From positions 1 through 60,710 of the forward strand of contig JAKSTF010000003.1 in NCBI GenBank assembly GCA_024402715.1: a stretch of 60,710 nucleotides of DNA, given 5' to 3'. Origin of the DNA: Alphaproteobacteria bacterium (GTDB lineage Bacteria > Pseudomonadota > Alphaproteobacteria > Rs-D84). Each line of letters starts with the position of its first letter. The first letter of the stretch is position 1. Both the position numbers and the translations under genes were made by a program. Under the pieces are notes generated by a model. It was not told the DNA's origin. It saw only the letters and a list, made by a program, of their open reading frames with translations, and did not search any database. This document shows positions 1-48,765 of this stretch, in pieces.

Positions 1-493
1 GGTTACCGCCGGTTGTTAAATGTGTAGAAGAGTGAGTTCCACCATAATAAATAGTAGTATTTCCTGGACAATAATACCCCGCCGTACAAGCAGTCTGTCC
101 GCTACCTGCGGTTGCGACATAGTTACCCGCTGTTGTGGTTAAAGAACAGTTTGCTTCTGAACTTGCAGCAGCCCCATTACGATAGTTAGCAGGGCATTGA
201 GTTTGTGCACTATTAGAGCTTTTATAATAACCAGAGGATACATCTTTACAAGATGTTTTACCCGTTTCATTTTGATATTTGGTTGCACCGCTGCATGCTA
301 CTTTATCGGCCTTTTCTCCGGTGCAATAATATCCCGCCGGACATATCACACATTGATCACCACTTAAATAATACCCAGCATTACAACTGGTATAGGTTAT
401 ATCACAGGTATAACCGGCGGCAAGTGCGTTTGCTGTGATAAAAAGTCCAAAAATGCATGTAAAATAACATAATGTACGGCATAATTTATGCAT
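1..493 (-). CDS. Secreted Cys-rich CxAGY-repeat protein, C-terminus cut by window edge
   Basis: An open frame runs from an ATG at 493 off the left edge, so 164 residues are visible. It begins with a signal peptide (basic MHKLCR, hydrophobic stretch, cleavage likely after ITANALA). Short Cys-rich units of the type CNAGYYL, CPAGYYC and CTAGYYCPG then follow. A strong Shine-Dalgarno AAGGAAGG lies just before the ATG, and a promoter is visible at 517-546. The units resemble the Cys-rich tails of large surface proteins in uncultured host-associated Alphaproteobacteria. A cell-envelope or adhesin-like role is inference only. The same CNAGY unit reappears at the far right edge of the window. Confidence 0.8.
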   Translation of the reverse strand, partial: MHKLCRTLCYFTCIFGLFITANALAAGYTCDITYTSCNAGYYLSGDQCVICPAGYYCTGEKADKVACSGATKYQNETGKTSCKDVSSGYYKSSNSAQTQCPANYRNGAAASSEANCSLTTTAGNYVATAGSGQTACTAGYYCPGNTTIYYGGTHSSTHLTTGGN

Positions 494-516
494 AAGAATC
501 CTTCCTTTTATAAAGG

Positions 517-546
517 ATGATAGAAAAATTTATATATTTAGTGCAA
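517..546 (-). promoter_or_regulatory. Promoter for the left-edge Cys-rich gene
   Basis: On the minus strand, TTGCAC (541-546) and TATCAT (517-522) are 18 bp apart, 24 bp upstream of the ATG at 493. Confidence 0.5.
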
Positions 547-610
547 TTAAAAAAATTAATTTGTTGTATTTTTTTAATTAATTGTGTTTTTGATGGTTGT
601 CGTTTAAAGT

Positions 611-652
611 CGTCACCCCGTTGCAGAACGGGGGCCATCGCAATGCAGACGT
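611..652. repeat. 42-bp dispersed repeat, copy 1
   Basis: This stretch matches 48792-48833 at about 36 of 42 positions with no gaps. The shared core is GTTGCAGAACGGG followed by CGCAATGC and GACGT. Both copies lie between genes, 48 kb apart. Confidence 0.75.
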
Positions 653-675
653 ATAATTATAATTTTTTTCAATGG

Positions 676-695
676 ATCCCGGCCTACGCCGGGAT
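676..695. repeat. GC-rich palindromic element
   Basis: ATCCCGGC, loop CTAC, GCCGGGAT form a perfect 8-bp stem, preceded by GG and followed by GACGG. A partial echo (GCCGGGATGACGG) occurs about 20 bp further on. This is the common 'GGATCCCGG...CCGGGATGAC' type of intergenic palindrome in Proteobacteria. It could also work as a weak terminator for the operon ending at 829. Confidence 0.6.
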
Positions 696-828
696 GACGG
701 TAAGGGGGGCTGATTGCCGGGATGACGGGGGAGAGGGGGGGATAGTTGATGTGTGATGGTGTGATGTGGGCTGGGGTGGTATATTTTTAATTTATGGGTA
801 TAGTGTGCGTGGGGCAGTGTGGGGTTGG

Positions 829-2013
829 TTACTTACATTCAACCACACCCCAATAAAGGCCGGCCCCGTATTTTACGGCCATTTCATTTTTTGTTGAGTG
901 ACCACAAAATGGTATTCCACCACCACAGGTATATGTTATTCCACCAATTACACATGTGTTTTGATTTGTAAATTCTTCACATGGACATGCAACATTTGTA
1001 CAACCTTGGTTTAGTGTCATAAGATTTCCCAATGCCTTTGGACAACTGGAACTGATGCCACTTAATTTTGACAGGGATGCCGGATTGCGTGAATATTTAC
1101 TGTACATTTCACGACAGCCTGTTGTTTTATTTATTTTCCCATAACCTTGGACCTGTTGATTTGTGCAATTGGTTATGTACCATTTTTTCTGTGTGTCATC
1201 CCATACTTCGTACGTAGATGGGCAATCTGGTTTTGAAACACACGATTTGGGATCATTACCGGTATCATTTTGTGGAACAATACATGCAGAACCACTGCGT
1301 TCATAGCCATCCTGACACCGTTGATATGCGGTGTATGTCTGTTTGCAGGTGATGCTGGTATCTGGCCAATCACAATATTCTTTAATAATTTCATGTTTGT
1401 CATTCAAACATAACCAATCACGTTTACATGCCGATTTTGCGGTTTGTGTTTCACATTTTTTTACACCGCAGGGTTCTATGGCTGTTAGATTTTCTGGAAT
1501 AACATCATCGGTCGTTTCAGAGGCCGTTTTTTCAGGTTGTGAATTTGTTGCTGGCTGTGGTTGTTCTGGTGTTACAATAATTGGTTGGATAATCGTATGT
1601 TTTGATGTTAATAAATCTGGGTATGTTATGCCCAAGCATTTTTTGTATTCAGTAATATCTGTTTGGGTCCAACATTGTTGTTTGAATTCCATCCCCGCCA
1701 TATCTGATTTAGTTTTATTTTGACCCCACACTAAATCGGTTTTTTCTAATTTTGCAGCCGGCTGGCAGATACCGGTATCGTTATCAAAATAATACCCAAT
1801 GTCACATTGTATACATCCCGAACCAAAACCTTCGGGAAAATTTCCAAAACGTGTGTTGGTTAAGATGTCAGTGGGACATTCTTTTACACAATTGGCATTA
1901 TCGTATTGATATTTTGCCGTAACAGTTTCAAGAACGCATTCTGCATATGTACCAATTGGCATCATAAACAACATGGAAAAACAACCGTAAAAAATATTCC
2001 GTTTTTTTAACAT
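829..2013 (-). CDS. Secreted Cys-rich protein of unknown function (394 aa)
   Basis: The first 24 residues form a signal peptide ending GTYA before ECVLE. The mature protein has well over 30 cysteines, with CxxGY/CxxGYY units (CDIGYYFDND, CQDGYERSG), a Thr/Pro/Glu-rich middle around residues 150-180 and a C-terminal Cys-rich half. I recognise no family. The disulfide-like Cys density points to an exported protein. It starts 4 bp after the stop of the 469-aa gene and is the last gene of a three-gene run (5983 to 829). Surface or envelope function is inferred from the signal peptide and Cys pattern. Confidence 0.8.
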   Translation of the reverse strand: MLKKRNIFYGCFSMLFMMPIGTYAECVLETVTAKYQYDNANCVKECPTDILTNTRFGNFPEGFGSGCIQCDIGYYFDNDTGICQPAAKLEKTDLVWGQNKTKSDMAGMEFKQQCWTQTDITEYKKCLGITYPDLLTSKHTIIQPIIVTPEQPQPATNSQPEKTASETTDDVIPENLTAIEPCGVKKCETQTAKSACKRDWLCLNDKHEIIKEYCDWPDTSITCKQTYTAYQRCQDGYERSGSACIVPQNDTGNDPKSCVSKPDCPSTYEVWDDTQKKWYITNCTNQQVQGYGKINKTTGCREMYSKYSRNPASLSKLSGISSSCPKALGNLMTLNQGCTNVACPCEEFTNQNTCVIGGITYTCGGGIPFCGHSTKNEMAVKYGAGLYWGVVECK

Positions 2014-2017
2014 TGTT

Positions 2018-3427
2018 TTATTGTTTGTTTTTTACACATGTCGCGTATTCATCGGGGTCCATTTTTGTCCAACACCAATTTTCATTCCATTTTTGCCCGC
2101 CATTTGTTTTGGTTGGACCGTATAACAGATAGTTTTTTTCCATCGGTTCGGTGGACACGCAGGTGTTTCCCTTAAATATGTCGCCTGTATTACACTTTAC
2201 ACAAACACCATTGCTGTCAATGCCGGTTTTGGCATCGGTATTACATACATCACATGTGTAATCACCTGATTTTGTAAAGGCCATGTCATTATCTTTGCAA
2301 AAATATTTTATACAACCATTTTCGCTTAATGATTCATGAATACTGGCATCAAAATCCGTGGCTGGGAACCCCGGACAAAATTTCGGTTTCGATGCAGGGG
2401 CAGTTTGTGTTTCTTGGGCCGGTTCTGTTTGTGGTTCTGGAATCAGGGCGTCTGGAACAGGTTCTGCTTTTGGGGCAGGTTTACATGTGCCGTCGTCGGC
2501 AATGCCGTTATCGCATTTTACGCAGTCGCGTTTAGCGGTATCTGCAAAACCCTTTGAAGAATCTTTGCATTTGAATTTGCTGCACGTGCCATCAGAGAAT
2601 TCTGTATGTTGTGTGCTGTTAAATTGGTTTTCTGTGTATCCAGTGCACCAATTGGTAACGCAATCCGTTTCAGCTGCATTTGCCGTATATCCGGCGGCAC
2701 ATAATAATTTTTTTGTTCCGGTTTCTGCAACATTATCTACGTAACTGCGTGCAACTTTGTAGTCTTTGCGATGACAGTCAAATTGAACGGGACGGGCAAT
2801 AACACCATGTTTCAAATATTTTACAACCCCCAACACAACATCATGTTCGGGATCTTTGCCCCATTGTTTAAACCCAAGAACATATTTTTCACGTTCGCCA
2901 TCTTTGCCACCAGATGTTTTTAATTTTATATTGTTAAATTTTGTTGAATAATCGGTTGTATCTTTGGTTGTTGCACCGGATACACGTTGTGTGCAACCAT
3001 CACCAGTATAGCCAGATTTACATAATGTAATACAATCATTGGCGGTACATTGGCGATTGCTGCTGCACATTGGATAATAGTAGTTAGTATATGAATACTT
3101 TTCTTTGTCTTTGTTATTACATTGCATTTGATATGGACAAAACTGTGCACCGTTTTCGTATATTTTTTCTGCAATTAATCCAACAACAGCACCTTCGTCG
3201 CCTGGATATGTTCCACATGGCCCGTTGTTACAATCTTTACTGCCATATTTTTGCAAAACACCATCTAAAATAAAACCAGCAGATGTTCCTGTCGCATTTT
3301 GTTCGCCGTTGTACCCCCACCAAGACCATGTTTTAGCATCGGCTACAGTTATTGAATGCGCAGAATATCCAGGTAAAAAAGCAACCGCAAATAGACACCA
3401 TGCAATTAAATAAATATAACGTTTCAT
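2018..3427 (-). CDS. Secreted Cys-rich protein of unknown function (469 aa)
   Basis: The signal peptide occupies about residues 1-23 (hydrophobic YLIAWCLFAVAFLPG, then YSAHS). The N-terminal half holds WSWWGYNGEQ and a Cys-rich region with C-x-S-GYTGDGC. The middle has a CxAGYTAN unit, and a Pro/Glu/Ala-rich linker lies near residues 315-345. The C-terminal part is again Cys-rich and closes with a WCWTKMDPDEYATC motif. A similar 'CWTQTDITEYKKC' motif occurs in the downstream 394-aa protein, so the two share a domain (W..T..D..EY..C). Function is unknown. It sits 24 bp after the 843-aa gene and 4 bp before the 394-aa gene, probably in one transcript. Confidence 0.8.
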   Translation of the reverse strand: MKRYIYLIAWCLFAVAFLPGYSAHSITVADAKTWSWWGYNGEQNATGTSAGFILDGVLQKYGSKDCNNGPCGTYPGDEGAVVGLIAEKIYENGAQFCPYQMQCNNKDKEKYSYTNYYYPMCSSNRQCTANDCITLCKSGYTGDGCTQRVSGATTKDTTDYSTKFNNIKLKTSGGKDGEREKYVLGFKQWGKDPEHDVVLGVVKYLKHGVIARPVQFDCHRKDYKVARSYVDNVAETGTKKLLCAAGYTANAAETDCVTNWCTGYTENQFNSTQHTEFSDGTCSKFKCKDSSKGFADTAKRDCVKCDNGIADDGTCKPAPKAEPVPDALIPEPQTEPAQETQTAPASKPKFCPGFPATDFDASIHESLSENGCIKYFCKDNDMAFTKSGDYTCDVCNTDAKTGIDSNGVCVKCNTGDIFKGNTCVSTEPMEKNYLLYGPTKTNGGQKWNENWCWTKMDPDEYATCVKNKQ

Positions 3428-3451
3428 GTTTTTGTTTCTCCGTATTCATAT

Positions 3452-5983
3452 TTAATTTTGTGGTGCATAACAGGTTGAATTTTCCCAATACCCACCCAAC
3501 GATTTACAACGTTGTTCGTACCATTCATCTGTAAATTCACAGGAATCTGTTTGCGGATTATATTTTGCAACAACTGTATCGCCATCAGAATTCCATTTAT
3601 TACACGCAATGGCTACGCTGTTCGATAAACAATATCCCCAAGATGTGCGTTCAGCCGTTGCGTTATGATCAGAATACAGGGCCAAATAAAACGCACCCAA
3701 TGTTTCTGGGTTCCCACCAGTGGTTTTCAAATGATTATACTCTGTTGGGTTAACCCAATTACCATTTAATTCTGAACATTTTTCCGATAACTGTTCGGTT
3801 AATAGCTCATAAACATTCTTCAATGCCGAACGTGCCTGTTGTTGTGTCAATGCGGGTAAATTATTAAATGTTTGCGGATCCTTTGATGAAGGATCAAAAC
3901 AATTTTCAACCGCATATTTTGTAACAGTTCCTGCTAACGTTTTTGTACTGATACTGTCCAGAGTAACCGACGCCAGGTTATCATCGATGCCGTTACCATA
4001 GTCTAAACTGCGGCAATTCCATGGGTATTTATCGGTTCCATTTGTTGGGGTACATAATTTTTCCAAATAATTGTTTAATGCAACTTCGCACCCTTCGGCG
4101 GCACGTGAGTTATCAACACTGTCAACGAAATTCAATAATGCGGTTAAACCACATGTGCTAGCACCCTCGTCACCACCAATCAAGTGTCCCGCACCATCAA
4201 AATTACAGGCAGTGTTACCATTCGCATTACCATACAATGCGGCACAGGCAACAACCTTTTCCTTGCACATTGCTTTGGATGCATATGCGGCCAGGGCACC
4301 TGCCTGTTGTGATGTTGTCTGATCAAAATCTTTCAAAGCACCGCTTTGTTTGTCGTAACATTCGCGCATTGTTGAAACACAGTTGTTGCGAACTTCTTCG
4401 ACTTTGGCTGCCTGGGCCTGGGCGATTTCAATTATTGCGGTTCGTTTAAATTCATCCCATACGGTTTTGGAAATGTCACGACATGCATCCAATGCCTGGG
4501 TTGCAAACATTTTACGTTTTTCTAAGAAATCATTGAATTCTGGGTTCTTAGATAAAATCTCTGCACCGCCATCCAACTTGATCATATATTCCAATTGAAA
4601 TAAACGGGGACTGTAAATTGGTTCGCCGTTGCTGATATTTACATATGCGCCAGAATAATCCAAACATTTATAATAACCCTTGCCACAGGCTGTATCAGAT
4701 AACAGTGCCACCCGAACCTGATCCAAGCAGTCATTAACGTCTTGGGAGTTATGATTTCTGTATTCTTCCAATCTGGCATCACGTAACATTTTTTCTGCCT
4801 GGCGAACGGTGGCCATAGCGGTTTGTTTGGATGCATCGATCTTTTTGGCGTATGCATTACAATCCTGGGTTATCATAATGCTGTATGCACTTTTGGCCAT
4901 GGTTAATGTTGCATCATTTTCACACTGATCGCTGATCATTGCAACACATTGTGAATTTGATTTATTGTATAATTCTTTACCTTCCAATGTGGTTAAATCA
5001 ACACCGCTGCTGGAAAATGCGCTGCCGTTGTTGCCAAATCCGCCGCCGGACCATATATCACCGATATCAGATGAAAAATCCAACGATAACACGCCCATAG
5101 ATGTGCCGGATGTGGACGATTTTTTTGTGCTTTTCTTTTTCCCGGATAGTAAATCACCAATTTCACTTAATAAATTTGCAGATGCACTGGTGTCGTTTTT
5201 CATTGCTGCTTCGCCGGCAGTCGCAGAATACATTGCGTTTACCTCAGCTGCGGTTTTATCGACGGCATTCAAATTGTTGTTTTCAAAGTTTTGTAATAAA
5301 ATTTTGGCTTGATCTATGGCATCTTCCATGTCACGAAATTCTGTGAAACGTTCACTGCAAAAACATCTGCGATATTTATCATTTGCATTGGCACAAAATT
5401 GATCCATACATGTGGCATATGATTCACGACATGCTGCATATGCCCCCCCAATTTTAGATATATCTGTAAAAACGGCCGTTGCACGTGCCTGGGCGGCGCG
5501 TGATGCGTTTAGCGGTGTGGTGGCACTGCGACCACGTGCAATACCGGGTGTTGTTAACGCTGATATTCCGGAACGTGAAGTATTTGGGGTTGATATTGCG
5601 GAACGGACCGCAGTATTTGATGCAGCACTGCGTAAAGTGCCGGTGACATTTGTTGCGTTTTTGCGTGATGCCACAGAATTTATTGCATTGCGTGATGTTC
5701 CCGAACGTGATGCAGTGGTTGTAACCTTTGATACAATATTTTTTGCCCGTCTGTTTGATACTGTATGGCCGGTACCGGTCGTACCGGTGCGTGTTGTTGT
5801 GTTACCACGTTGTGTTTGTTGATCCACAGAACGCCCCACACGAACATCGGTGCGTCCCGTTGCATCAATTACAGTTGCACCACGTGGATTTGCCGTCTGT
5901 ATCGCATATGCATTGTTGTAAACAAATGCAACCGTCGCACAAATTAATCCAAAACCACAAAATTTATAAATGGAATTTTTCAC
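3452..5983 (-). CDS. Large secreted protein with Arg/Thr/Ser low-complexity head (843 aa)
   Basis: The start is GTG at 5983 with a purine-rich AAAGAGAGA about 8 bp upstream; the nearby ATG at 5990 is out of frame. A signal peptide ending NAYA is followed by about 150 residues of low-complexity Arg/Thr/Ser/Ala/Gly sequence containing 'SRSG'-like units. Next comes a Cys-containing region (ACRESYATCMDQFCAN, RRCFCSERF), a long Ala/Glu/Lys-rich part likely to be helical, and paired Cys throughout. The C-terminus is Cys-rich (CKSLGGYWENSTC). I do not recognise the family. It heads a run of three secreted-protein genes, so a joint envelope role is plausible but unproven. Confidence 0.8.
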   Translation of the reverse strand: MKNSIYKFCGFGLICATVAFVYNNAYAIQTANPRGATVIDATGRTDVRVGRSVDQQTQRGNTTTRTGTTGTGHTVSNRRAKNIVSKVTTTASRSGTSRNAINSVASRKNATNVTGTLRSAASNTAVRSAISTPNTSRSGISALTTPGIARGRSATTPLNASRAAQARATAVFTDISKIGGAYAACRESYATCMDQFCANANDKYRRCFCSERFTEFRDMEDAIDQAKILLQNFENNNLNAVDKTAAEVNAMYSATAGEAAMKNDTSASANLLSEIGDLLSGKKKSTKKSSTSGTSMGVLSLDFSSDIGDIWSGGGFGNNGSAFSSSGVDLTTLEGKELYNKSNSQCVAMISDQCENDATLTMAKSAYSIMITQDCNAYAKKIDASKQTAMATVRQAEKMLRDARLEEYRNHNSQDVNDCLDQVRVALLSDTACGKGYYKCLDYSGAYVNISNGEPIYSPRLFQLEYMIKLDGGAEILSKNPEFNDFLEKRKMFATQALDACRDISKTVWDEFKRTAIIEIAQAQAAKVEEVRNNCVSTMRECYDKQSGALKDFDQTTSQQAGALAAYASKAMCKEKVVACAALYGNANGNTACNFDGAGHLIGGDEGASTCGLTALLNFVDSVDNSRAAEGCEVALNNYLEKLCTPTNGTDKYPWNCRSLDYGNGIDDNLASVTLDSISTKTLAGTVTKYAVENCFDPSSKDPQTFNNLPALTQQQARSALKNVYELLTEQLSEKCSELNGNWVNPTEYNHLKTTGGNPETLGAFYLALYSDHNATAERTSWGYCLSNSVAIACNKWNSDGDTVVAKYNPQTDSCEFTDEWYEQRCKSLGGYWENSTCYAPQN

Positions 5984-6045
5984 GGGACATCTCTCTTTGT
6001 TAATCTAAGGATAACATTTTTCAAATTTTTAAATCAACCATTAAT

Positions 6046-6654
6046 TTATTCTATGCAACAATTCACTGCATTTTTTACCCAGTCACCCAATTTGCGAACA
6101 GTTGATTTTGATTCTGTTGTCAATTTTTCAGATGATTTTGATACTTTTTTTCCAGAAATTTTGCCGTCAATTAGGCAGGTTGCGGTTGCACGTTCATAAA
6201 CATCTGGGGCAATTTTTTGAACACCGGTCATATCAATCAATTCCATGTTAATACCCCAAAATAATGAATACAAATCATATGCACGATTAAACATTGCGTA
6301 TGCATCATTGGTGTTGCCCGCGGATAAGGCTTTGGTGCCAACCTCTATCAAGCGCATAGACGCCGCCAACAAATGTTTTGAAATACACCAAACTTCGCCA
6401 TCTTCGGCCGATGATTTTTTCACAATGCGAGTCATTAAATCTTTGCGCATATCACGTACCGTATTAATCATATCGTAAAAACCGGTTTTACGTGTTTTTG
6501 CACCACTGAAAAAGAAATGTTCTTCTAATGACACCAAATTCATCAACGCGATTGTTAAATCTTGGTCAGATGATAAATCCATCGGGTTGACCTTTTTAGA
6601 TTCATCAACCTTTTTTATCATTTCGTCTAATGTCATCTTTTTTTCTTTTTTCAT
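6046..6654 (-). CDS. Unknown cytoplasmic alpha-helical protein (202 aa)
   Basis: No signal peptide or membrane segment is seen. The start is supported by an AAGGAAAT Shine-Dalgarno before the ATG at 6654; a second Met at 6636 is possible. The body is mostly helical (SLEEHFFFSG, NTVRDMRKDLMTRIVKKSS, AMFNRAYDLYSLFWGINMEL) and the tail is Lys/Ser-rich. No known motif is visible. It lies 29 bp from the membrane protein gene upstream and 62 bp before the secreted-protein genes, all on the minus strand, so it is likely cotranscribed with both. Confidence 0.75.
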   Translation of the reverse strand: MKKEKKMTLDEMIKKVDESKKVNPMDLSSDQDLTIALMNLVSLEEHFFFSGAKTRKTGFYDMINTVRDMRKDLMTRIVKKSSAEDGEVWCISKHLLAASMRLIEVGTKALSAGNTNDAYAMFNRAYDLYSLFWGINMELIDMTGVQKIAPDVYERATATCLIDGKISGKKVSKSSEKLTTESKSTVRKLGDWVKNAVNCCIE

Positions 6655-6683
6655 TTTTTATTTCCTTTTTTACAATTTTTTAA

Positions 6684-7232
6684 TCAACACAAATTAATTC
6701 CAATCGATGGCAGCCATTCTATGATTGCCCAAAATATCAATGTTGTAATCAATAAACCGCCAAATGGCATAACAACCTTTTGAAATGGGAACAGGGCATG
6801 TCCACCATGTGTGTTTTTATAACGAATATATGCCCGTGCCATGGTATAAAACACCAGCGTTCCAACAAGCGTCCCCAGCATAAATCTGTCAATTCCCCAA
6901 ATACAATCGCGGTTAAAATGAACCATTGGATTATTGTGTGGCATAAAGTAAACCATGGACAGGGCAACATAATACGCAATAAAATTTACAATATACCAAA
7001 ATGTGTTACGAACACCATGACGATGCATAAATGACGCCGTCCACATAATCAAAGATAATGTTAAACCACCAGCCCAGATGCCGGTTAAAACATCATCAAC
7101 CCCCAACAGACGTGCACCTTCTAATCCGGCGCCAACTGCAACCGTACAAACAGGACACACAGCCGATGAAATACCCGGTATCAATGACGAAACAATTACC
7201 ATTAATGCCGAAAATAACCACAATTTTTTCAT
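6684..7232 (-). CDS. Multi-pass membrane protein with N-terminal CPVC motif (182 aa)
   Basis: The chosen start at 7232 has the Shine-Dalgarno AAGGAAAGGAAAC right upstream; the longer frame (to 7277) lacks one. An N-terminal hydrophobic stretch of about 23 residues is followed by VCPVCTVAVGAG and then about four more hydrophobic segments. The pattern 'CPVCTVAVGAGL...LGVDDVLTGIWAGGL' resembles a conserved but uncharacterised family of small membrane proteins. The CPVC could be a redox or metal site, which is inference. The gene lies 60 bp downstream of rsmH. Confidence 0.75.
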   Translation of the reverse strand: MKKLWLFSALMVIVSSLIPGISSAVCPVCTVAVGAGLEGARLLGVDDVLTGIWAGGLTLSLIMWTASFMHRHGVRNTFWYIVNFIAYYVALSMVYFMPHNNPMVHFNRDCIWGIDRFMLGTLVGTLVFYTMARAYIRYKNTHGGHALFPFQKVVMPFGGLLITTLIFWAIIEWLPSIGINLC

Positions 7233-7292
7233 TACGTTTCCTTTCCTTAAAATTGCATTTTTACCAATTTTGCACAAATTTGGCCATATGTG

Positions 7293-37582: not shown

Positions 37583-37671
37583 GGAGCGTTGGCAGAGTGG
37601 TAATGCAGCGGATTGCTAATCCGTGACCGTGTTATAGCGGTCCATAGGTTCGAGTCCTATACGCTCCGCCA
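37583..37671 (+). tRNA. tRNA-Ser (anticodon GCT)
   Basis: The acceptor GGAGCGT pairs with ACGCTCC, discriminator G, and CCA is encoded. The anticodon stem CGGAT/ATCCG carries loop TGCTA within TTGCTAA, and the long variable arm (TGACCGTGTTATAGCGGTCC) marks a class II serine tRNA. The T arm is ATAGG TTCGAGT CCTAT. Confidence 0.95.
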
Positions 37672-37815: not shown

Positions 37816-39516
37816 TTATCTTGCAATTAACTTTAATTGCTCATAGATTTTTACATTTATTGCAGCCGTTAGTTCATGAATTTTTTTACTGGCCAATTCA
37901 TAATTCTTTTGGCCAATATTTCGTTGGTGTTCAGACAAACTCATTGAATTCAGGCGTTTGGTTAACCAAGTACAATATTTCACATACCAATCAATTTGTC
38001 TGTTTAATTCTTCTATTTCTAACATCTTGTTTGTCATACGTGTAGCGGTTGCTTTTTCTAAATTTGGAACAGGTAATATATCTTTTTCAGCACATGATTC
38101 TTGTTTAACGGGTGCAGTTTCTGTATTTACATCGTTTCTGATTATAGTTCCATCATTTGCAATTATATATTTTTTACTGTGTTCATCCGCATTAATAATT
38201 TCTGGATTACACGATAAAGACTCTATCATTTCCTTTGATTCTTTGTTATTACCTAACCATTCTGACAAATTAACACTTTCATGGGTATTAATAGTGGTGG
38301 CCCGATTTTTTATAATGGCTTCAACTCTTTTATCTACATCCTTTTTTTCACGGGCGTACATAAGTAACATATCTTTGCCTTCTACAACTGCACACAAGAA
38401 TGCCATTTGATTATATACATATAGCTTATATTGCGTGATAACGTCAAAAAAGCTCTTTTTTAAAAACTTATCTTTTTTACCGTTAAGCACTTGTGTATAA
38501 AAATTATGTAACCTTTTTTTAACTTTGTTTTGTTCGTTCTTAGGGCGGTCTGTTAAAAGATTTTGAAATATTTTTGATACCAAAATTTCGCTGTCTGTAT
38601 TTTGATCAATTTTTTCTTGTTTTTGTGATATTTTATCTAAATACTTATCAATTTCTGATATTAACAACCATGTATTCTCATCAGTCGTATTATTATACGT
38701 ATTAATGTATTGTTTTTTTGTAACGTTTTTGATTTGTTTTTTTGTTGTGTCTAAAAAATAAAATGAATTGTTTCGTTTTACACAAATAAAAGTTCTTTCT
38801 GCATACTCAATTTTTAATAATGCCGAGTTACAGTTTTCTATATTTTCTAGGACTTCTTTTTTAAATGTATTCCTGTTGCCGGTAATATCATGTACCAAAT
38901 TTGTTACAAAAATACGATATAATTTTTTATCGTCTTTTAATTTATTGGCAAAATCCGGACGGATTTTTATTTCTGCGGTATTTTCTATATTGTTCATTTT
39001 TTTATCTTTTGTTTGTATACCAGATATTTCGGTGATTGTAGATTGGTTATTAGAATCATTTAAAGTTTTTTTATCACTTATACCTTTTGGTAATCTATCT
39101 TTTTTGTTTGGCCAATTTATGTATGCTTCAAAATCTAATAAATCAACACAATCAATATTACCAGTATCAATTTTTTTTACTAAATTTTTACATAAATCTA
39201 TATCTGCATCTTGATTACCGTCGGTATTTTTATCTCCGGAATTTAATATATACAAAATCGAATCTTTAATAGTGTAATAAAACCGATATCCAAGATTTTT
39301 ACCATTGCAATTAAAACCATAAAACGCTTCGCAATTTCGATTAGTTGTTTCACTATGACTATTTAAATATTCTTTTAAATAAGTTCTTAGTTCCTCGGGT
39401 GAAGATATAAGTTTTGCATTATCTAGAATATCTAAAAATTTATCTAATACATCTGGATAGGATTTGTTAAACCTTTTCAAATTGTTACAAACAGTTTGTG
39501 TTATTAATACTTTCAT
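37816..39516 (-). CDS. Unknown large protein with RelE/HigB-like N-terminal domain (566 aa)
   Basis: The first 115 residues resemble a RelE/HigB-fold toxin of the type that ends 'R-YF...GDKxTQxxDIxxA': here GYRFYYTIKDSILYILNSGD, then KNTDGNQDADIDLCKNLVKK. The rest, very rich in Lys, Asn, Asp and Thr, has no recognised domain; a helical C-terminus (about 500-566) may be coiled. No antitoxin gene lies beside it. The composition is more AT-rich than the housekeeping neighbours, suggesting acquired DNA. A palindrome (39550-39564) overlaps the likely -10 box. Its role is unknown, and the toxin-like reading is an inference from one motif. Confidence 0.7.
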   Translation of the reverse strand: MKVLITQTVCNNLKRFNKSYPDVLDKFLDILDNAKLISSPEELRTYLKEYLNSHSETTNRNCEAFYGFNCNGKNLGYRFYYTIKDSILYILNSGDKNTDGNQDADIDLCKNLVKKIDTGNIDCVDLLDFEAYINWPNKKDRLPKGISDKKTLNDSNNQSTITEISGIQTKDKKMNNIENTAEIKIRPDFANKLKDDKKLYRIFVTNLVHDITGNRNTFKKEVLENIENCNSALLKIEYAERTFICVKRNNSFYFLDTTKKQIKNVTKKQYINTYNNTTDENTWLLISEIDKYLDKISQKQEKIDQNTDSEILVSKIFQNLLTDRPKNEQNKVKKRLHNFYTQVLNGKKDKFLKKSFFDVITQYKLYVYNQMAFLCAVVEGKDMLLMYAREKKDVDKRVEAIIKNRATTINTHESVNLSEWLGNNKESKEMIESLSCNPEIINADEHSKKYIIANDGTIIRNDVNTETAPVKQESCAEKDILPVPNLEKATATRMTNKMLEIEELNRQIDWYVKYCTWLTKRLNSMSLSEHQRNIGQKNYELASKKIHELTAAINVKIYEQLKLIAR

Positions 39517-44547: not shown

Positions 44548-47358
44548 ATGTCAAAACAAATGATTATTTATTGGTACACAACCAAGAAACAATTCAATGA
44601 AATTGAACCGGGGCAAACATGGTGTATTGGTGAAGTTGACCCGAACGCCGGTAAATATTTTGGTATGTCCACCGCCAAAGCGGCCGAAACCCGCGTGCGT
44701 GAAGAACTGGGCAAAACCAAAGACGGGGCACGCATAACCTTTGATGATATTACCGATTTAGAATATGATTCATTTGAATTTCCGAACCCAAATAACAAAG
44801 AAAAAGGTATGGATAAAGATATCCATGCAATGTTAAAAAACATTAATTGTAAACAAATTGCCACAGAATGGTTTAATACTACACCTGATGAAATAAAACG
44901 TGTCATAGGGCATTTGGTTGCAGGGACATCACTTGGCACAAAATACGAATTACGCAAAAGACAAAGCAGCGCAATCGGCGCATTCAAGAAAGCATTGGAT
45001 AACAAACAAAAAAAATTTGGTTTATTCGCAATGCCACGATTTGGGAAAACAATATGTTCATTTGAAATGATGAATTTGTTGTTTGAAAGATTTCCAGACA
45101 AAAAATACATATTCTTTATTTCTGCAAAACTGGATGCAGAACAAGCATTGCGCGAAGATTATTATAAATTTGACCAAAGTTGTAATTTCAAATTATGTTT
45201 ATACGATTCTGATACCAAGGTCACATTAGAAGATTTACAAAAAGATAAATATCTGTTCTTTGCCAGCAAACAATGGTTTGATGGTAAAAACTTAGATGAA
45301 ATAAGAAAACGATTTCCCTGTGTAAATCACGACGATTGTGCGGCGGTGTTTTTTGACGAGGCTCATTTTGCCCGCATGACAGATAATGCCCAAGGCACAA
45401 TACGTTTATTAAATCCGTGTATGCAGATTGATATTACCGGCACACCGTTCAGACTAAAAACTAACGAAGATTATGACGATAACAACTCGTATGTTTATAG
45501 TGTTTTGGACGAATATGACGATTATGAAAATTCAGACAACAAAGACGCATTCCGGTTAAAGAATCCTGAAATGGTTTATATAACACCGAAAAATGAATTC
45601 TTTAAAACAGACAGTTCTTTTGGTGAATTTTTTGACAGTGATGACTGCAAAGACAGTATCAAAGAATGGGTGTCCAAAACATTCTATGGCGGAAAATTTA
45701 ATATCGACGGTAAACCATTGCCGATAACTAATGCCATTGTGGTTTTGCCGCCACGCCGTAAATATTGTGATTTGTTTGCTGCGGCTGTTAATGAATTAGT
45801 TCGCGACAACAAATACGCCATCAAATGCACAAAAACCACCACCAAAGATAACGATGACAGGGACTATATTCCTGACAATGAACAACGTTTCAAAGAATGG
45901 AATCGTATATGTAAAAACGAACCAAATTGTTTCCACCTGTTGGTGACAATTGGTAAAGGTTTACAGGCCGTGTCATTTCCCGATTGTCATGCAGTTATAA
46001 TGATGTGTGATATGACATCGCCAGAACAATACATTCAGGCGGCATTTCGCAGCAAAACACCAAACGGTATCAAAAAAGAAGCATATGTTGTTGACTATAA
46101 CAAAGGCCGCACATTACAGGTAATTGATACATTCATCAAGAATCATTTGGCGGTTCGGGCATGTGACGCAAATTACAAAACAGAATATCAACGCGCTTTG
46201 TCGCGTATTGATATCCGTGACCACACACTTGTTCGCCAAGAATATACATTTGAAGAAATATTCCAAACATTCATATCAAATTGGAATATTGAAAGAATTA
46301 CCGACACCATAGATTTTGATATAGAAAGATTGGTTAACAAGATAGATTTAAGCGGGGTTAAATTATCGGATTTACAAAAACCACATCAATTAACATTACA
46401 GTTAACTGAACGTGGCGACGATTATAAGCAATCAGCCCCCAAAACCGAAGAACCAGAAACAGGCACAGATGATGGCGGTGACGGCGGCGCCAAACATTTG
46501 GCACCTGATTGGTTGGAAAAACATATAGAAAAATTGAAATCAGATTTAATTAAATACGGATATATCCCATTTGGTGGCACCGAATCAGATAGATTGAAAG
46601 ATATAAATCCGGATGAAATACAAAGACGTGCATTACGTGTCGGCAAAAATGACGACGAACAAGATGTTTGGTCATATCTGGGCGGTGATGGCGATTGGGA
46701 TGATATATACATTGATGAATCTGGCCTGTCACCATCAACTGTTCGTTGGAAATACGTTATAAATAACAAGTTTGTTAATGTTAGTGGCGAAGGTTCACAC
46801 GGCGAAGGTGCCGCAGATATAAAAAAGGCGAAGGCATTCATAAACGCAATTATTCGTTATTTACCCGCATATTTCTTGGTTTCCGGTGTTCCAAATGGGT
46901 TTGATGATTTCAAAGACCGTTTCGGTCGTCAAACCGTTTCTGAAAAGCACCAAGAACGTCAGTTATTCCGTGAATTTATGGGGATGGGTATAGATTACCG
47001 TTATATCATTGAAATATTGAAAGTATGTGACGCAGGCAGTCGTGAACAAATCATTGCATATTGTGCGGACAAAGTTGCCAAATGTTATACCGCGGATGGC
47101 AAATTGATTCCAGAAAACGTTTTGGAATTACTGTGGGTTTATAAAAAAGACGGCAGCCGCCCTGTGCCAAAAGGGCTAGCCGACATAATGCGCAAAGATA
47201 AAAACTATGACATTGTCGTTTGTGGTGGTTATTGGTTAACAGATAGCACAACAAAAATATATATATATCACCGACAGTTTTGCAGAATCCAAAATCATAA
47301 AAAAATTACGCCCAAATTGTCAGGCCCTGTATTCCAACGACATTTTACAAACACTTGA
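44548..47358 (+). CDS. GIY-YIG-like nuclease/SF2 helicase protein of a restriction-like system
   Basis: Residues about 1-120 resemble the T5orf172/MUG113 branch of GIY-YIG nucleases, with Arg49 (ETRVREEL) and Glu107 (TEWF) as candidate catalytic residues; the GIY and YIG strands are degenerate. The helicase core has Walker A-like AMPRFGKT (161-168), DEAH (270-273), DITGTPFR (295-302) and the motif VI-like QAAFRSK (497-503). The C-terminal half is unassigned. Such proteins power DNA translocation in Type I, III and ISP restriction systems. The frame ends about 30 residues after an (AT)6 run at 47257-47268; one more AT unit would fuse it to the methyltransferase gene that follows. Confidence 0.85.
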   Translation: MSKQMIIYWYTTKKQFNEIEPGQTWCIGEVDPNAGKYFGMSTAKAAETRVREELGKTKDGARITFDDITDLEYDSFEFPNPNNKEKGMDKDIHAMLKNINCKQIATEWFNTTPDEIKRVIGHLVAGTSLGTKYELRKRQSSAIGAFKKALDNKQKKFGLFAMPRFGKTICSFEMMNLLFERFPDKKYIFFISAKLDAEQALREDYYKFDQSCNFKLCLYDSDTKVTLEDLQKDKYLFFASKQWFDGKNLDEIRKRFPCVNHDDCAAVFFDEAHFARMTDNAQGTIRLLNPCMQIDITGTPFRLKTNEDYDDNNSYVYSVLDEYDDYENSDNKDAFRLKNPEMVYITPKNEFFKTDSSFGEFFDSDDCKDSIKEWVSKTFYGGKFNIDGKPLPITNAIVVLPPRRKYCDLFAAAVNELVRDNKYAIKCTKTTTKDNDDRDYIPDNEQRFKEWNRICKNEPNCFHLLVTIGKGLQAVSFPDCHAVIMMCDMTSPEQYIQAAFRSKTPNGIKKEAYVVDYNKGRTLQVIDTFIKNHLAVRACDANYKTEYQRALSRIDIRDHTLVRQEYTFEEIFQTFISNWNIERITDTIDFDIERLVNKIDLSGVKLSDLQKPHQLTLQLTERGDDYKQSAPKTEEPETGTDDGGDGGAKHLAPDWLEKHIEKLKSDLIKYGYIPFGGTESDRLKDINPDEIQRRALRVGKNDDEQDVWSYLGGDGDWDDIYIDESGLSPSTVRWKYVINNKFVNVSGEGSHGEGAADIKKAKAFINAIIRYLPAYFLVSGVPNGFDDFKDRFGRQTVSEKHQERQLFREFMGMGIDYRYIIEILKVCDAGSREQIIAYCADKVAKCYTADGKLIPENVLELLWVYKKDGSRPVPKGLADIMRKDKNYDIVVCGGYWLTDSTTKIYIYHRQFCRIQNHKKITPKLSGPVFQRHFTNT
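47257..47268. repeat. (AT)6 run at the helicase-methyltransferase frame junction
   Basis: Six AT units lie in helicase codons 904-907. After the run, the frame of the methyltransferase gene is open back to this point, with 36 sense codons before its ATG. Adding one AT unit (+2) joins the two frames without a stop. Confidence 0.85.
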
Positions 47359-47377: not shown

Positions 47378-48214
47378 ATGAAATTCAAATCATTTATAAT
47401 GAATCCCCCCTATGGCAATCTGCATTTGCCAATATTAAAACAGATGATTGAAACAGTTGTTGATAACGGTGGTCATGGTGTTAGTTTACAACCAGTTCGT
47501 TGGTTGCAAGACCCATTAAAAGAATATAAACAAGGGACGGATTATAAGAGATTTGGGCAAGTTTTTAATAGTTATATAGACGATATTGTAATTATTCCTT
47601 CAACCGAATGTGGTAAATTATTTGGTGCTATATTTACAATGGATTTGGGCATATACAGGGCAAAACAAAATGCTGCACTACAATTAGATTCTTTCGCAAA
47701 AGATGAACTATTAGAAAAAATATTAAAAATATTAACAACACAAAGTCAATTTCATACAACAATAAGCAAAAAGATTGAAAAAGAAAAGCGATTTGGAATT
47801 CGTGTAAAAGTTAATGAAATACAAGATAATGGTAGAGCTGGTAACGGCGGTCGTAAATCGTATATAGGATTATATCAAACCTTTTTGGTGATAAATGGTT
47901 TAATTAATGGAAAAGATTGGACAGATTCAATACAAAAGAACCAACATAGCCGTCAAGAAGGCGATATGTTACCATATAGCATAGAGTTTGCAAACGAACT
48001 GTCAGCCAAAAATTTTATAGAATCAACAAAAACAATATTTTTTCAATATTTGCTATTAAAAATGCACCAAGACATACACATGCCAAGTCAATGGTTGCCA
48101 TTTATGAATGATTATTCTGAACCATGGACAGATGAACGGTTTTATGCATATTTTGATATAACACCAGATGAACAAAAAATAATCGAAAAGACGGTTAAAG
48201 ACGCAAAGAAATAA
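47378..48214 (+). CDS. Catalytic half of an N6-adenine DNA methyltransferase (NPPY motif)
   Basis: The motif IV catalytic NPPY is at residues 9-12 (FIMNPPYGNLHL), so there is no room for the AdoMet-binding motif I before it. The rest looks like the second half of Eco57I/Type III-like methyltransferases, ending SQWLPFMNDYSEPWTDERFY and AYFDITPDEQKIIE. The open frame reaches upstream to the (AT)6 run, which suggests it was, or in another phase is, the C-terminal part of the helicase protein. Its stop overlaps the start of the next gene by one base (TAATG). With the next gene it would supply a complete methyltransferase in reversed order. Confidence 0.82.
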   Translation: MKFKSFIMNPPYGNLHLPILKQMIETVVDNGGHGVSLQPVRWLQDPLKEYKQGTDYKRFGQVFNSYIDDIVIIPSTECGKLFGAIFTMDLGIYRAKQNAALQLDSFAKDELLEKILKILTTQSQFHTTISKKIEKEKRFGIRVKVNEIQDNGRAGNGGRKSYIGLYQTFLVINGLINGKDWTDSIQKNQHSRQEGDMLPYSIEFANELSAKNFIESTKTIFFQYLLLKMHQDIHMPSQWLPFMNDYSEPWTDERFYAYFDITPDEQKIIEKTVKDAKK

Positions 48215-48765
48215 TGACACGTAAAAACGGTTTTTATAATTGCGATAATTGTGCGGGGGATTTGTGTTTGACACGTGCCGAATGTAAATCCGCCGGTGCT
48301 TTTCATACACCAAAAAAATTGGCCATGAACATGGCAAAAAAGTTATATCCAGATTACTTAAAATGTAAAACCAAAGCGGAAATTATTGAAAAATTCGGTG
48401 AACGGGGGCGCGAATTTTTAAATGGTTTTAACTTGATTGACCCATGTTGCGGAACGGGTAATTTGTTGGCCGCTGCGATGAATGTATATAAATGGATGGA
48501 TGAAGAAGATTTATATGGGGTTGATATTGACCCACGGGCCGTTGAGTTCTGTATCAAAAAATTTCCCCACGGACATTTTCAGGTCGGTGATTGTTTATTA
48601 GAAGATTTAACAGACGATAAATTTTGGCAACACCCATCCGATGGACTATTCGGGGCATACAAGGCAGAAAAATTACAAGCCGCCACAGCAATATTAAAAG
48701 ACAAAAGTATAAAACAACGTAAAGAATTATCAAACGTTCTTTTACAGGAAAAACATATCAATTGA
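48214..48765 (+). CDS. AdoMet-binding half of an N6-adenine DNA methyltransferase
   Basis: Residues 76-83 are the motif I DPCCGTGN, followed by the motif II-like GVDIDPRAVEFC (102-113) and FQVGDCLLEDL. FHTPKKLAMNMAKKL before it fits motif X. An N-terminal Cys cluster (CDNCAGDLCLTRAEC, residues 10-24) could bind zinc. No NPPY follows: the protein ends in a helical tail at residue 183. The missing catalytic half is the preceding gene, so the two probably act together. It is followed by the second copy of the 42-bp repeat. Confidence 0.82.
   Translation: MTRKNGFYNCDNCAGDLCLTRAECKSAGAFHTPKKLAMNMAKKLYPDYLKCKTKAEIIEKFGERGREFLNGFNLIDPCCGTGNLLAAAMNVYKWMDEEDLYGVDIDPRAVEFCIKKFPHGHFQVGDCLLEDLTDDKFWQHPSDGLFGAYKAEKLQAATAILKDKSIKQRKELSNVLLQEKHIN

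What the first reader, a model, noticed from the sequence alone, without database searches (positions are those of the whole stretch)
44548..45500. GIY-YIG-like domain fused to a DEAH translocase
Residues 1-120 have the spacing of T5orf172/MUG113 GIY-YIG nucleases (Arg49, Glu107), directly ahead of an SF2 helicase core. With the methyltransferase halves this gives a nuclease-helicase-methyltransferase order like single-chain Type ISP enzymes, but with an unusual nuclease and a split, permuted methyltransferase. It may be a new restriction or anti-phage variant.
Basis: inference. Interest (0 to 1): 0.7.

Follow-up and report, generated by a model that had tools for sequence, protein, structure and literature searches.

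The report
Divergent split-methylase restriction system (DrdVI-like)
This is a restriction-modification system, a bacterial defence that marks its own DNA and probably cuts foreign DNA; it belongs to a little-studied but already described family (prototype DrdVI), and is a divergent form in which half of the methylating enzyme is fused to the DNA-pumping nuclease.

Summary
Residues 1-125 of ORF 44548-47358 belong to the T5orf172 branch of GIY-YIG nucleases. The window protein scores just under Pfam's cut-off, but orthologue L009 passes it, and profile comparison with 14 related nuclease-helicases gives 96% (unrelated controls below 1%). Tyr8, Arg49, Asp89 and Glu107 are identical in all 18 family members aligned. 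Asp89, not Glu107, lines up with the glutamate whose mutation kills the T5orf172 nuclease Odn. The "split methyltransferase" is part artefact, part real. ORF1 and ORF2 are one gene broken by a 2-base slip in (AT)6 at 47257-47268; orthologue L010 has an intact 1227-aa protein. ORF3 (methylase motifs X-I-II-III) is a separate gene in both genomes. The closest known systems are DrdVI and MaeIV, "split methylase" R-M systems whose cloned M1+M2 pairs make m6A. It is not a Type ISP enzyme. What differs: the M2 half (NPPY + recognition region) is fused behind the translocase, the M1 gene lies downstream, and a lineage-specific region stands where related systems have a degenerate SAM half. Close orthologues occur in 3 of 201 genomes of the order. 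A new variant of a known kind; interest modest.

The parts
44548..44943 (+). N-terminal GIY-YIG-type (T5orf172) nuclease domain, residues 1-132; Tyr8, Arg49, Asp89, Glu107 invariant in the family
   Evidence: predicted strand/helix order b-b-a-b-a at low confidence
44941..46160 (+). SF2 (ResIII/HsdR-like) translocase core, PRFGKT (Walker A, 163-168), DEAH (270-273), QAAFR (497-501)
   Evidence: ResIII E 5e-14; SWI2_SNF2 over cut-off; HsdR subfamily, partial match; motifs invariant in 18 members
46495..47250 (+). Lineage-specific region (about residues 650-901) between translocase and methylase half; no known match
   Evidence: conserved in 3 orthologues; no Pfam match; no profile match to the corresponding region of related systems (0.4%); fold prediction uninformative (pLDDT 40)
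47257..47268 (+). (AT)6 tract with a 2-base slip relative to L010; breaks the gene into ORF1 and ORF2
   Evidence: intact 1227-aa ORF in L010
47378..48214 (+). ORF2: M2 half of the methylase, motif IV NPPY plus C-terminal (putative recognition) region; C-terminus of the same gene, or expressed from the internal Met that coincides with the natural start of stand-alone M2 halves
   Evidence: E 4e-7 to a related methylase; 95.6% to M2 family; dN/dS 0.18
48214..48765 (+). ORF3: M1 subunit, motifs X (FHTP), I (DPCCGTGN), II (GVDID), III (VGDC); no NPPY; TAATGA overlap with ORF2
   Evidence: N6_Mtase over cut-off; 93.5% to the M1 family including M1.DrdVI; dN/dS 0.10

Best explanation
A two-gene, DrdVI-like split-methylase restriction-modification system, inserted between rpoD and a conserved downstream gene. 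Gene 1 (ORF1+ORF2, about 1220 aa when in frame) carries the GIY-YIG nuclease, the SF2 DNA translocase, a linker region, and the catalytic NPPY plus target-recognition half of an adenine methylase (M2). Gene 2 (ORF3) supplies the SAM-binding half (M1) in trans. Inferred mechanism: M1 and the M2 half together form one N6-adenine methylase that marks an asymmetric site. On an unmarked site the same complex switches to ATP-driven movement by the SF2 motor, and the N-terminal GIY-YIG domain cuts. In the window the large gene is out of frame after residue ~905 by a 2-base slip. This is an assembly error, a recent mutation, or a tolerated split: the second piece starts at the same MKF...NPPY position where related systems start a separate M2 gene. 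Shown: domains, motifs, homology, gene order, frameshift. Inferred: activity, site type, cleavage mechanism.
For: N-domain belongs to the T5orf172 family. ORF1 is homologous to GIY-YIG-helicases over about 500 aa (blastp E down to 4e-19). ORF2 is homologous to M2 methylases, ORF3 to M1; controls below 1%. ORF1+ORF2 are intact as one protein, followed by ORF3, in L010. ORF3 was found only in genomes with the large gene. All three parts are under purifying selection. [quoted passage not shown] The L010 copy lies next to AbiLi/AbiLii-like (RloB) genes and near a phage-type integrase. In relative G011 rpoD and the downstream gene are adjacent without the insert.
Against: No structure confirms the GIY-YIG fold: the model has pLDDT 55 and neither Foldseek nor VIA-align brought up a GIY-YIG nuclease significantly. 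The family has Asp instead of the usual catalytic Glu. The window copy is frameshifted. Identity to DrdVI-like translocases is only 20-24% and the branch is very long. No modification or cleavage data exist for this clade.
Confidence: 0.8

Rival explanations
1. The system is a decaying or switched-off copy in this strain: the (AT)6 slip is a real mutation (chance or phase variation), leaving a nuclease-translocase without its methylase half in cis.
For: The slip lies in a short dinucleotide repeat, with an intact orthologue in L010. A DrdVI-like system in Bibersteinia trehalosi is also reported frameshifted and inactive.
Against: dN/dS is 0.18 for the part behind the slip, so the loss is recent if real. 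ORF2 keeps a start at the position where related systems begin a separate M2 gene, so both pieces could still work. (AT)6 is short for phase variation. An assembly error cannot be excluded without reads.
Confidence: 0.3
2. The GIY-YIG-like domain no longer cuts (Asp89 in place of Glu) and only binds DNA; the locus is a methylase with a motor, or an anti-phage block without cleavage.
For: The catalytic-position residue is Asp in all 18 family members aligned, whereas Odn has Glu180, whose change to Ala abolishes cleavage.
Against: Tyr, Arg, the acidic residue and a second acidic residue are all invariant, also in DrdVI, which is described as an REase fused to a translocase. Invariance of active-site positions suggests selection for catalysis.
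Confidence: 0.15
3. It is a Type ISP enzyme with a swapped nuclease.
For: Same overall order nuclease - SF2 - linker - methylase - recognition region as described for Type ISP.
Against: Nuclease family differs, the methylase is split over two genes, and sequence homology is to the DrdVI-like family. No PDB relative by sequence, although Type ISP structures have been reported.
Confidence: 0.03

Closest known systems
DrdVI (Deinococcus wulumuqiensis NEB 479, plasmid pDrdVI) and MaeIV: 'split methylase' R-M systems, filed as Type IIG
   Same: M1 with intact SAM motifs and no NPPY; M2 with NPPY and recognition region; N-terminal GIY-YIG-type domain fused to an SF2 translocase; compact operon. Homology detected for all three parts to the family that includes DrdVI.
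   Different: Here M2 is fused behind the translocase, M1 is the last gene, the degenerate SAM half that M2.DrdVI carries in front of NPPY was not recognisable and a lineage-specific region stands there; translocase identity to family members only about 22%.
Fused forms such as WP_134211875.1 (Paenisporosarcina antarctica plasmid, 1437 aa, L054) and the PADLOC model REase_MTase_IIG PDLC03626
   Same: Single protein with GIY-YIG-type domain, SF2 core, then NPPY methylase half, with a separate small N-6 methylase gene.
   Different: Small M1 gene lies upstream there and the fused protein keeps a degenerate SAM half; the window protein did not match PDLC03626.
Type ISP enzymes LlaGI/LlaBIII
   Same: Order nuclease - SF2 translocase - linker - methylase - recognition domain.
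   Different: Type ISP: Mrr-family nuclease and one chain; here T5orf172 nuclease and two genes.
Odn (ICP1 gp88), T5orf172 nuclease
   Same: Same nuclease domain family; conserved Arg and the acidic position.
   Different: Odn is a stand-alone phage nuclease with a RepA-like DNA-binding domain and Glu180; here Asp89 and a motor.

Membership tests
DrdVI-like split-methylase R-M | GIY-YIG-type domain at the N-terminus of an SF2 translocase | tested here: met
DrdVI-like split-methylase R-M | Separate M1 protein with SAM motifs X-I-II and no NPPY, homologous to M1.DrdVI | tested here: met
   ORF3: (93.5%, E 2e-7)
DrdVI-like split-methylase R-M | M2 with NPPY and recognition region, homologous to M2.DrdVI | tested here: met
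   ORF2: (95.6%, E 1e-8); homology shown for the C-terminal ~70 aa, NPPY by direct reading
DrdVI-like split-methylase R-M | M2 preceded by a degenerate SAM half (as in DrdVI, L017, L050) | tested here: inconclusive
   the region before NPPY has no profile match; fold prediction too poor
DrdVI-like split-methylase R-M | M1+M2 give m6A at an asymmetric site | not testable with these tools
   published for DrdVI and MaeIV only
DrdVI-like split-methylase R-M | ATP-dependent restriction | not testable with these tools
   needs biochemistry
GIY-YIG superfamily (T5orf172) | Profile match over the curated cut-off | tested here: met
   met by orthologue L009 (20.7 bits, cut-off 20) and by related helicases; window itself 17.7-19.2 bits, below cut-off
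GIY-YIG superfamily (T5orf172) | Three-stranded GIY-YIG fold | tested here: inconclusive
   order b-b-a-b-a predicted, pLDDT 55; no significant structural match
GIY-YIG superfamily (T5orf172) | Catalytic Arg and Glu | tested here: inconclusive
   Arg49 present; the Glu position (Odn E180) is Asp89 here and in all 18 members aligned
Type ISP | Mrr-family PD-(D/E)XK nuclease at the N-terminus | tested here: not met
   N-domain is T5orf172
Type ISP | Single polypeptide carrying the whole methylase | tested here: not met
   motifs X-III lie on separate ORF3, also in L010

The most novel reading that the evidence does not exclude
A two-subunit restriction-modification enzyme in which the methylase active site can form only when a small SAM-binding subunit (ORF3) docks onto the motor-nuclease chain, with no SAM half, even a degenerate one, in cis. 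Modification and restriction would then be switched by presence of the small subunit, and the lineage-specific 650-900 region would be the docking/coupling domain.
Probability: 0.3. Interest if true: 0.45.

Novelty: new variant of a known kind. Interest (0 to 1): 0.33.

Why it matters
The DrdVI-like split-methylase systems are common on plasmids and in genomes but, in the papers found here, are known mainly from methylome reports; no mechanism of cleavage was found. This divergent branch narrows which residues are essential (Tyr8, Arg49, Asp89, Glu107 and SF2 motifs invariant over 18 proteins) and shows that the methylase halves can be redistributed between subunits, which makes the roles of M1 and M2 directly testable.

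Tried and rejected
Sequence search of PDB with the window protein, the orthologue profile and the nuclease-domain profile: nothing relevant. Fold prediction of the N-domain with three sequences: low confidence; Foldseek/VIA lists unrelated ribosomal and oxidase chains, with two phage homing/intron endonucleases in BFVD at E about 0.2, not significant; no conclusion drawn from the absence. Fold prediction of the region 640-1227 of L010: pLDDT 40, unusable. Viral contigs: no relatives with single protein or profile. ORF1 and ORF3 have no close relatives in phage records; plasmids hold only distant helicase matches for ORF1 and none for ORF3. Glu107 as the catalytic acid: rejected in favour of Asp89 by alignment with Odn E180, though Glu107 is also invariant. 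Type ISP membership: rejected. Phase variation: considered, not supported beyond the short AT tract. PADLOC hit PD-T4-4_B (E 0.025, residues 89-120) covers only the end of the nuclease domain and was not taken as evidence.

Full report
Observation. The ORF at 44548-47358 (936 aa) begins with a domain that Pfam scores just below its cut-offs for MUG113 and T5orf172 (E 0.0014 and 0.0017), followed from residue 132 by an SF2 core (ResIII E 5e-14). The sub-threshold match is real homology: orthologue L009 passes the T5orf172 cut-off (20.7 against 20 bits), and the three orthologous N-domains align to 14 N-domains of related GIY-YIG-helicases with 96.2% probability and E 2.6e-9 (94.7% with a smaller set), while unrelated pairs of the same alignments give 0.1-0.9%. 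Related helicases pass the T5orf172 cut-off on their own.

Active-site residues. In an alignment of 18 family members Tyr8, Arg49, Asp89, Glu107 and Trp108 are identical throughout, as are the SF2 motifs. Odn of phage ICP1 is a T5orf172 nuclease whose E180A change abolishes cleavage (PMC8263062). Its E180 (TEQRIHEEL) aligns with Asp89 (MDKDIHAML), not with Glu107, which lies in the later EWF motif.

The methylase. ORF2 (47378-48214) opens with MKFKSFIMNPPYG (motif IV) and ORF3 (48214-48765) carries motifs X, I, II and III but no NPPY. Orthologue L010 (64% identity, another uncultured alphaproteobacterial genome) has one intact 1227-aa ORF that joins window ORF1 and ORF2, and a separate 192-aa ORF3 starting in the stop-start overlap. 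In the window the joint is broken by one AT unit too many, (AT)6 at 47257-47268; the other frame continues as KIYITDSFAESKIIKKL...NPPYG, matching L010. ORF1, ORF2 and ORF3 are all under purifying selection against L010 (dN/dS 0.13, 0.18, 0.10; dS near saturation, so rough). Thus the split between motifs III and IV is a conserved gene boundary, while the ORF1/ORF2 split is a recent frameshift or an assembly error. ORF2's start coincides with the natural start (MKFD...NPPY) of stand-alone M2 halves in related loci, so even the broken form may work.

Distribution. Close orthologues occur in 3 of 201 genomes of the order (the window's genome and two whose matches have the coordinates of L010 and L009), in none of the other genomes in a 398-genome phylum sample, and only as distant matches in plasmids. 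ORF3 was found only where the large gene is. A relative (G011) has rpoD next to the downstream 641-aa gene with 0.68 kb between, against 5.0 kb in the window: the system is an insertion. In L010 it sits beside AbiLi/AbiLii-like (RloB) genes with a phage-type integrase near by.

What it is. Distant relatives are widespread: Treponema and Lactiplantibacillus plasmids, Rhizobium, Mycobacteroides, Variovorax, Deinococcus, a gut phage, and two more loci in the window's own genome (contigs C34 and C61). The recurring set is a small methylase piece with intact SAM motifs, an NPPY methylase piece, and a GIY-YIG-helicase. The Deinococcus plasmid is pDrdVI, and the literature names the family: M1-2.DrdVI methylates GCAGCC (m6A, filed as IIG, PMC6430315); [quoted passage not shown] That the three genes on pDrdVI shown are M1, M2 and DrdVI is inferred from plasmid name, gene content and the published description. 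ORF3 matches the M1 family (93.5%) and ORF2 the M2 family (95.6%).

What differs. In the window clade M2 is fused behind the translocase and M1 follows. Fusion of translocase and M2 is known elsewhere (1437-aa protein of Paenisporosarcina; PADLOC model PDLC03626), with M1 upstream. DrdVI-type M2 and the fused forms carry a degenerate SAM half before NPPY (visible as DPCTKSG, CPACKDG or DLYTKSG-like blocks). In the window clade this was not recognisable, and a lineage-specific region stands there (0.4%). The clade's branch is very long (2.8 substitutions per site).

Mechanism. Shown: domains, motifs, homology, gene order, constraint, insertion. Inferred: that M1 and the M2 half form one adenine methylase on the motor chain; that unmarked sites trigger ATP-driven movement and cutting by the GIY-YIG domain, by analogy with other SF2-coupled R-M enzymes. 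Neither DNA site nor cleavage pattern can be predicted.

Verdict. A real but not unprecedented system: a divergent variant of DrdVI-like split-methylase restriction-modification. It fails two defining features of Type ISP.

Noticed in passing
L013 (G000:C34:1-12000) 135-3449 and L050 (G000:C61:17500-28500) 2604-7260: The same ~1.0 Mb genome carries two further, distantly related GIY-YIG-helicase loci: C34 (1104 aa, at the contig start, so any upstream methylase genes are not visible) and C61 (859 aa helicase, 175 aa M1, 515 aa M2 with degenerate motif I). Three such systems in so small a genome is striking.
   Followed up: partly
L011, L012, L014-L016 (C-terminus of the helicase ORFs): A sub-group of the family has a degenerate motif X/I block (IFTPKKVV...FIDLYMKSGLY) fused to the C-terminus of the helicase while the NPPY half is mostly a separate protein starting MKFD...NPPY; methylase halves appear to have been moved between subunits more than once.
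   Followed up: partly
window 37816-39516 (-): 566-aa protein with only weak hits (RelE/ParE-like N-terminus, E 0.001, far below cut-off); no function found, next to a tRNA-Ser at 37583-37671.
   Followed up: no
L010 4595-8569 (-): AbiLi/AbiLii-like (AAA_21 + RloB) pair and an unidentified 684-aa protein with a P-loop-like start beside the orthologous system; the same AbiLi/AbiLii pair also flanks the related system in L015 (8018-9897).
   Followed up: partly
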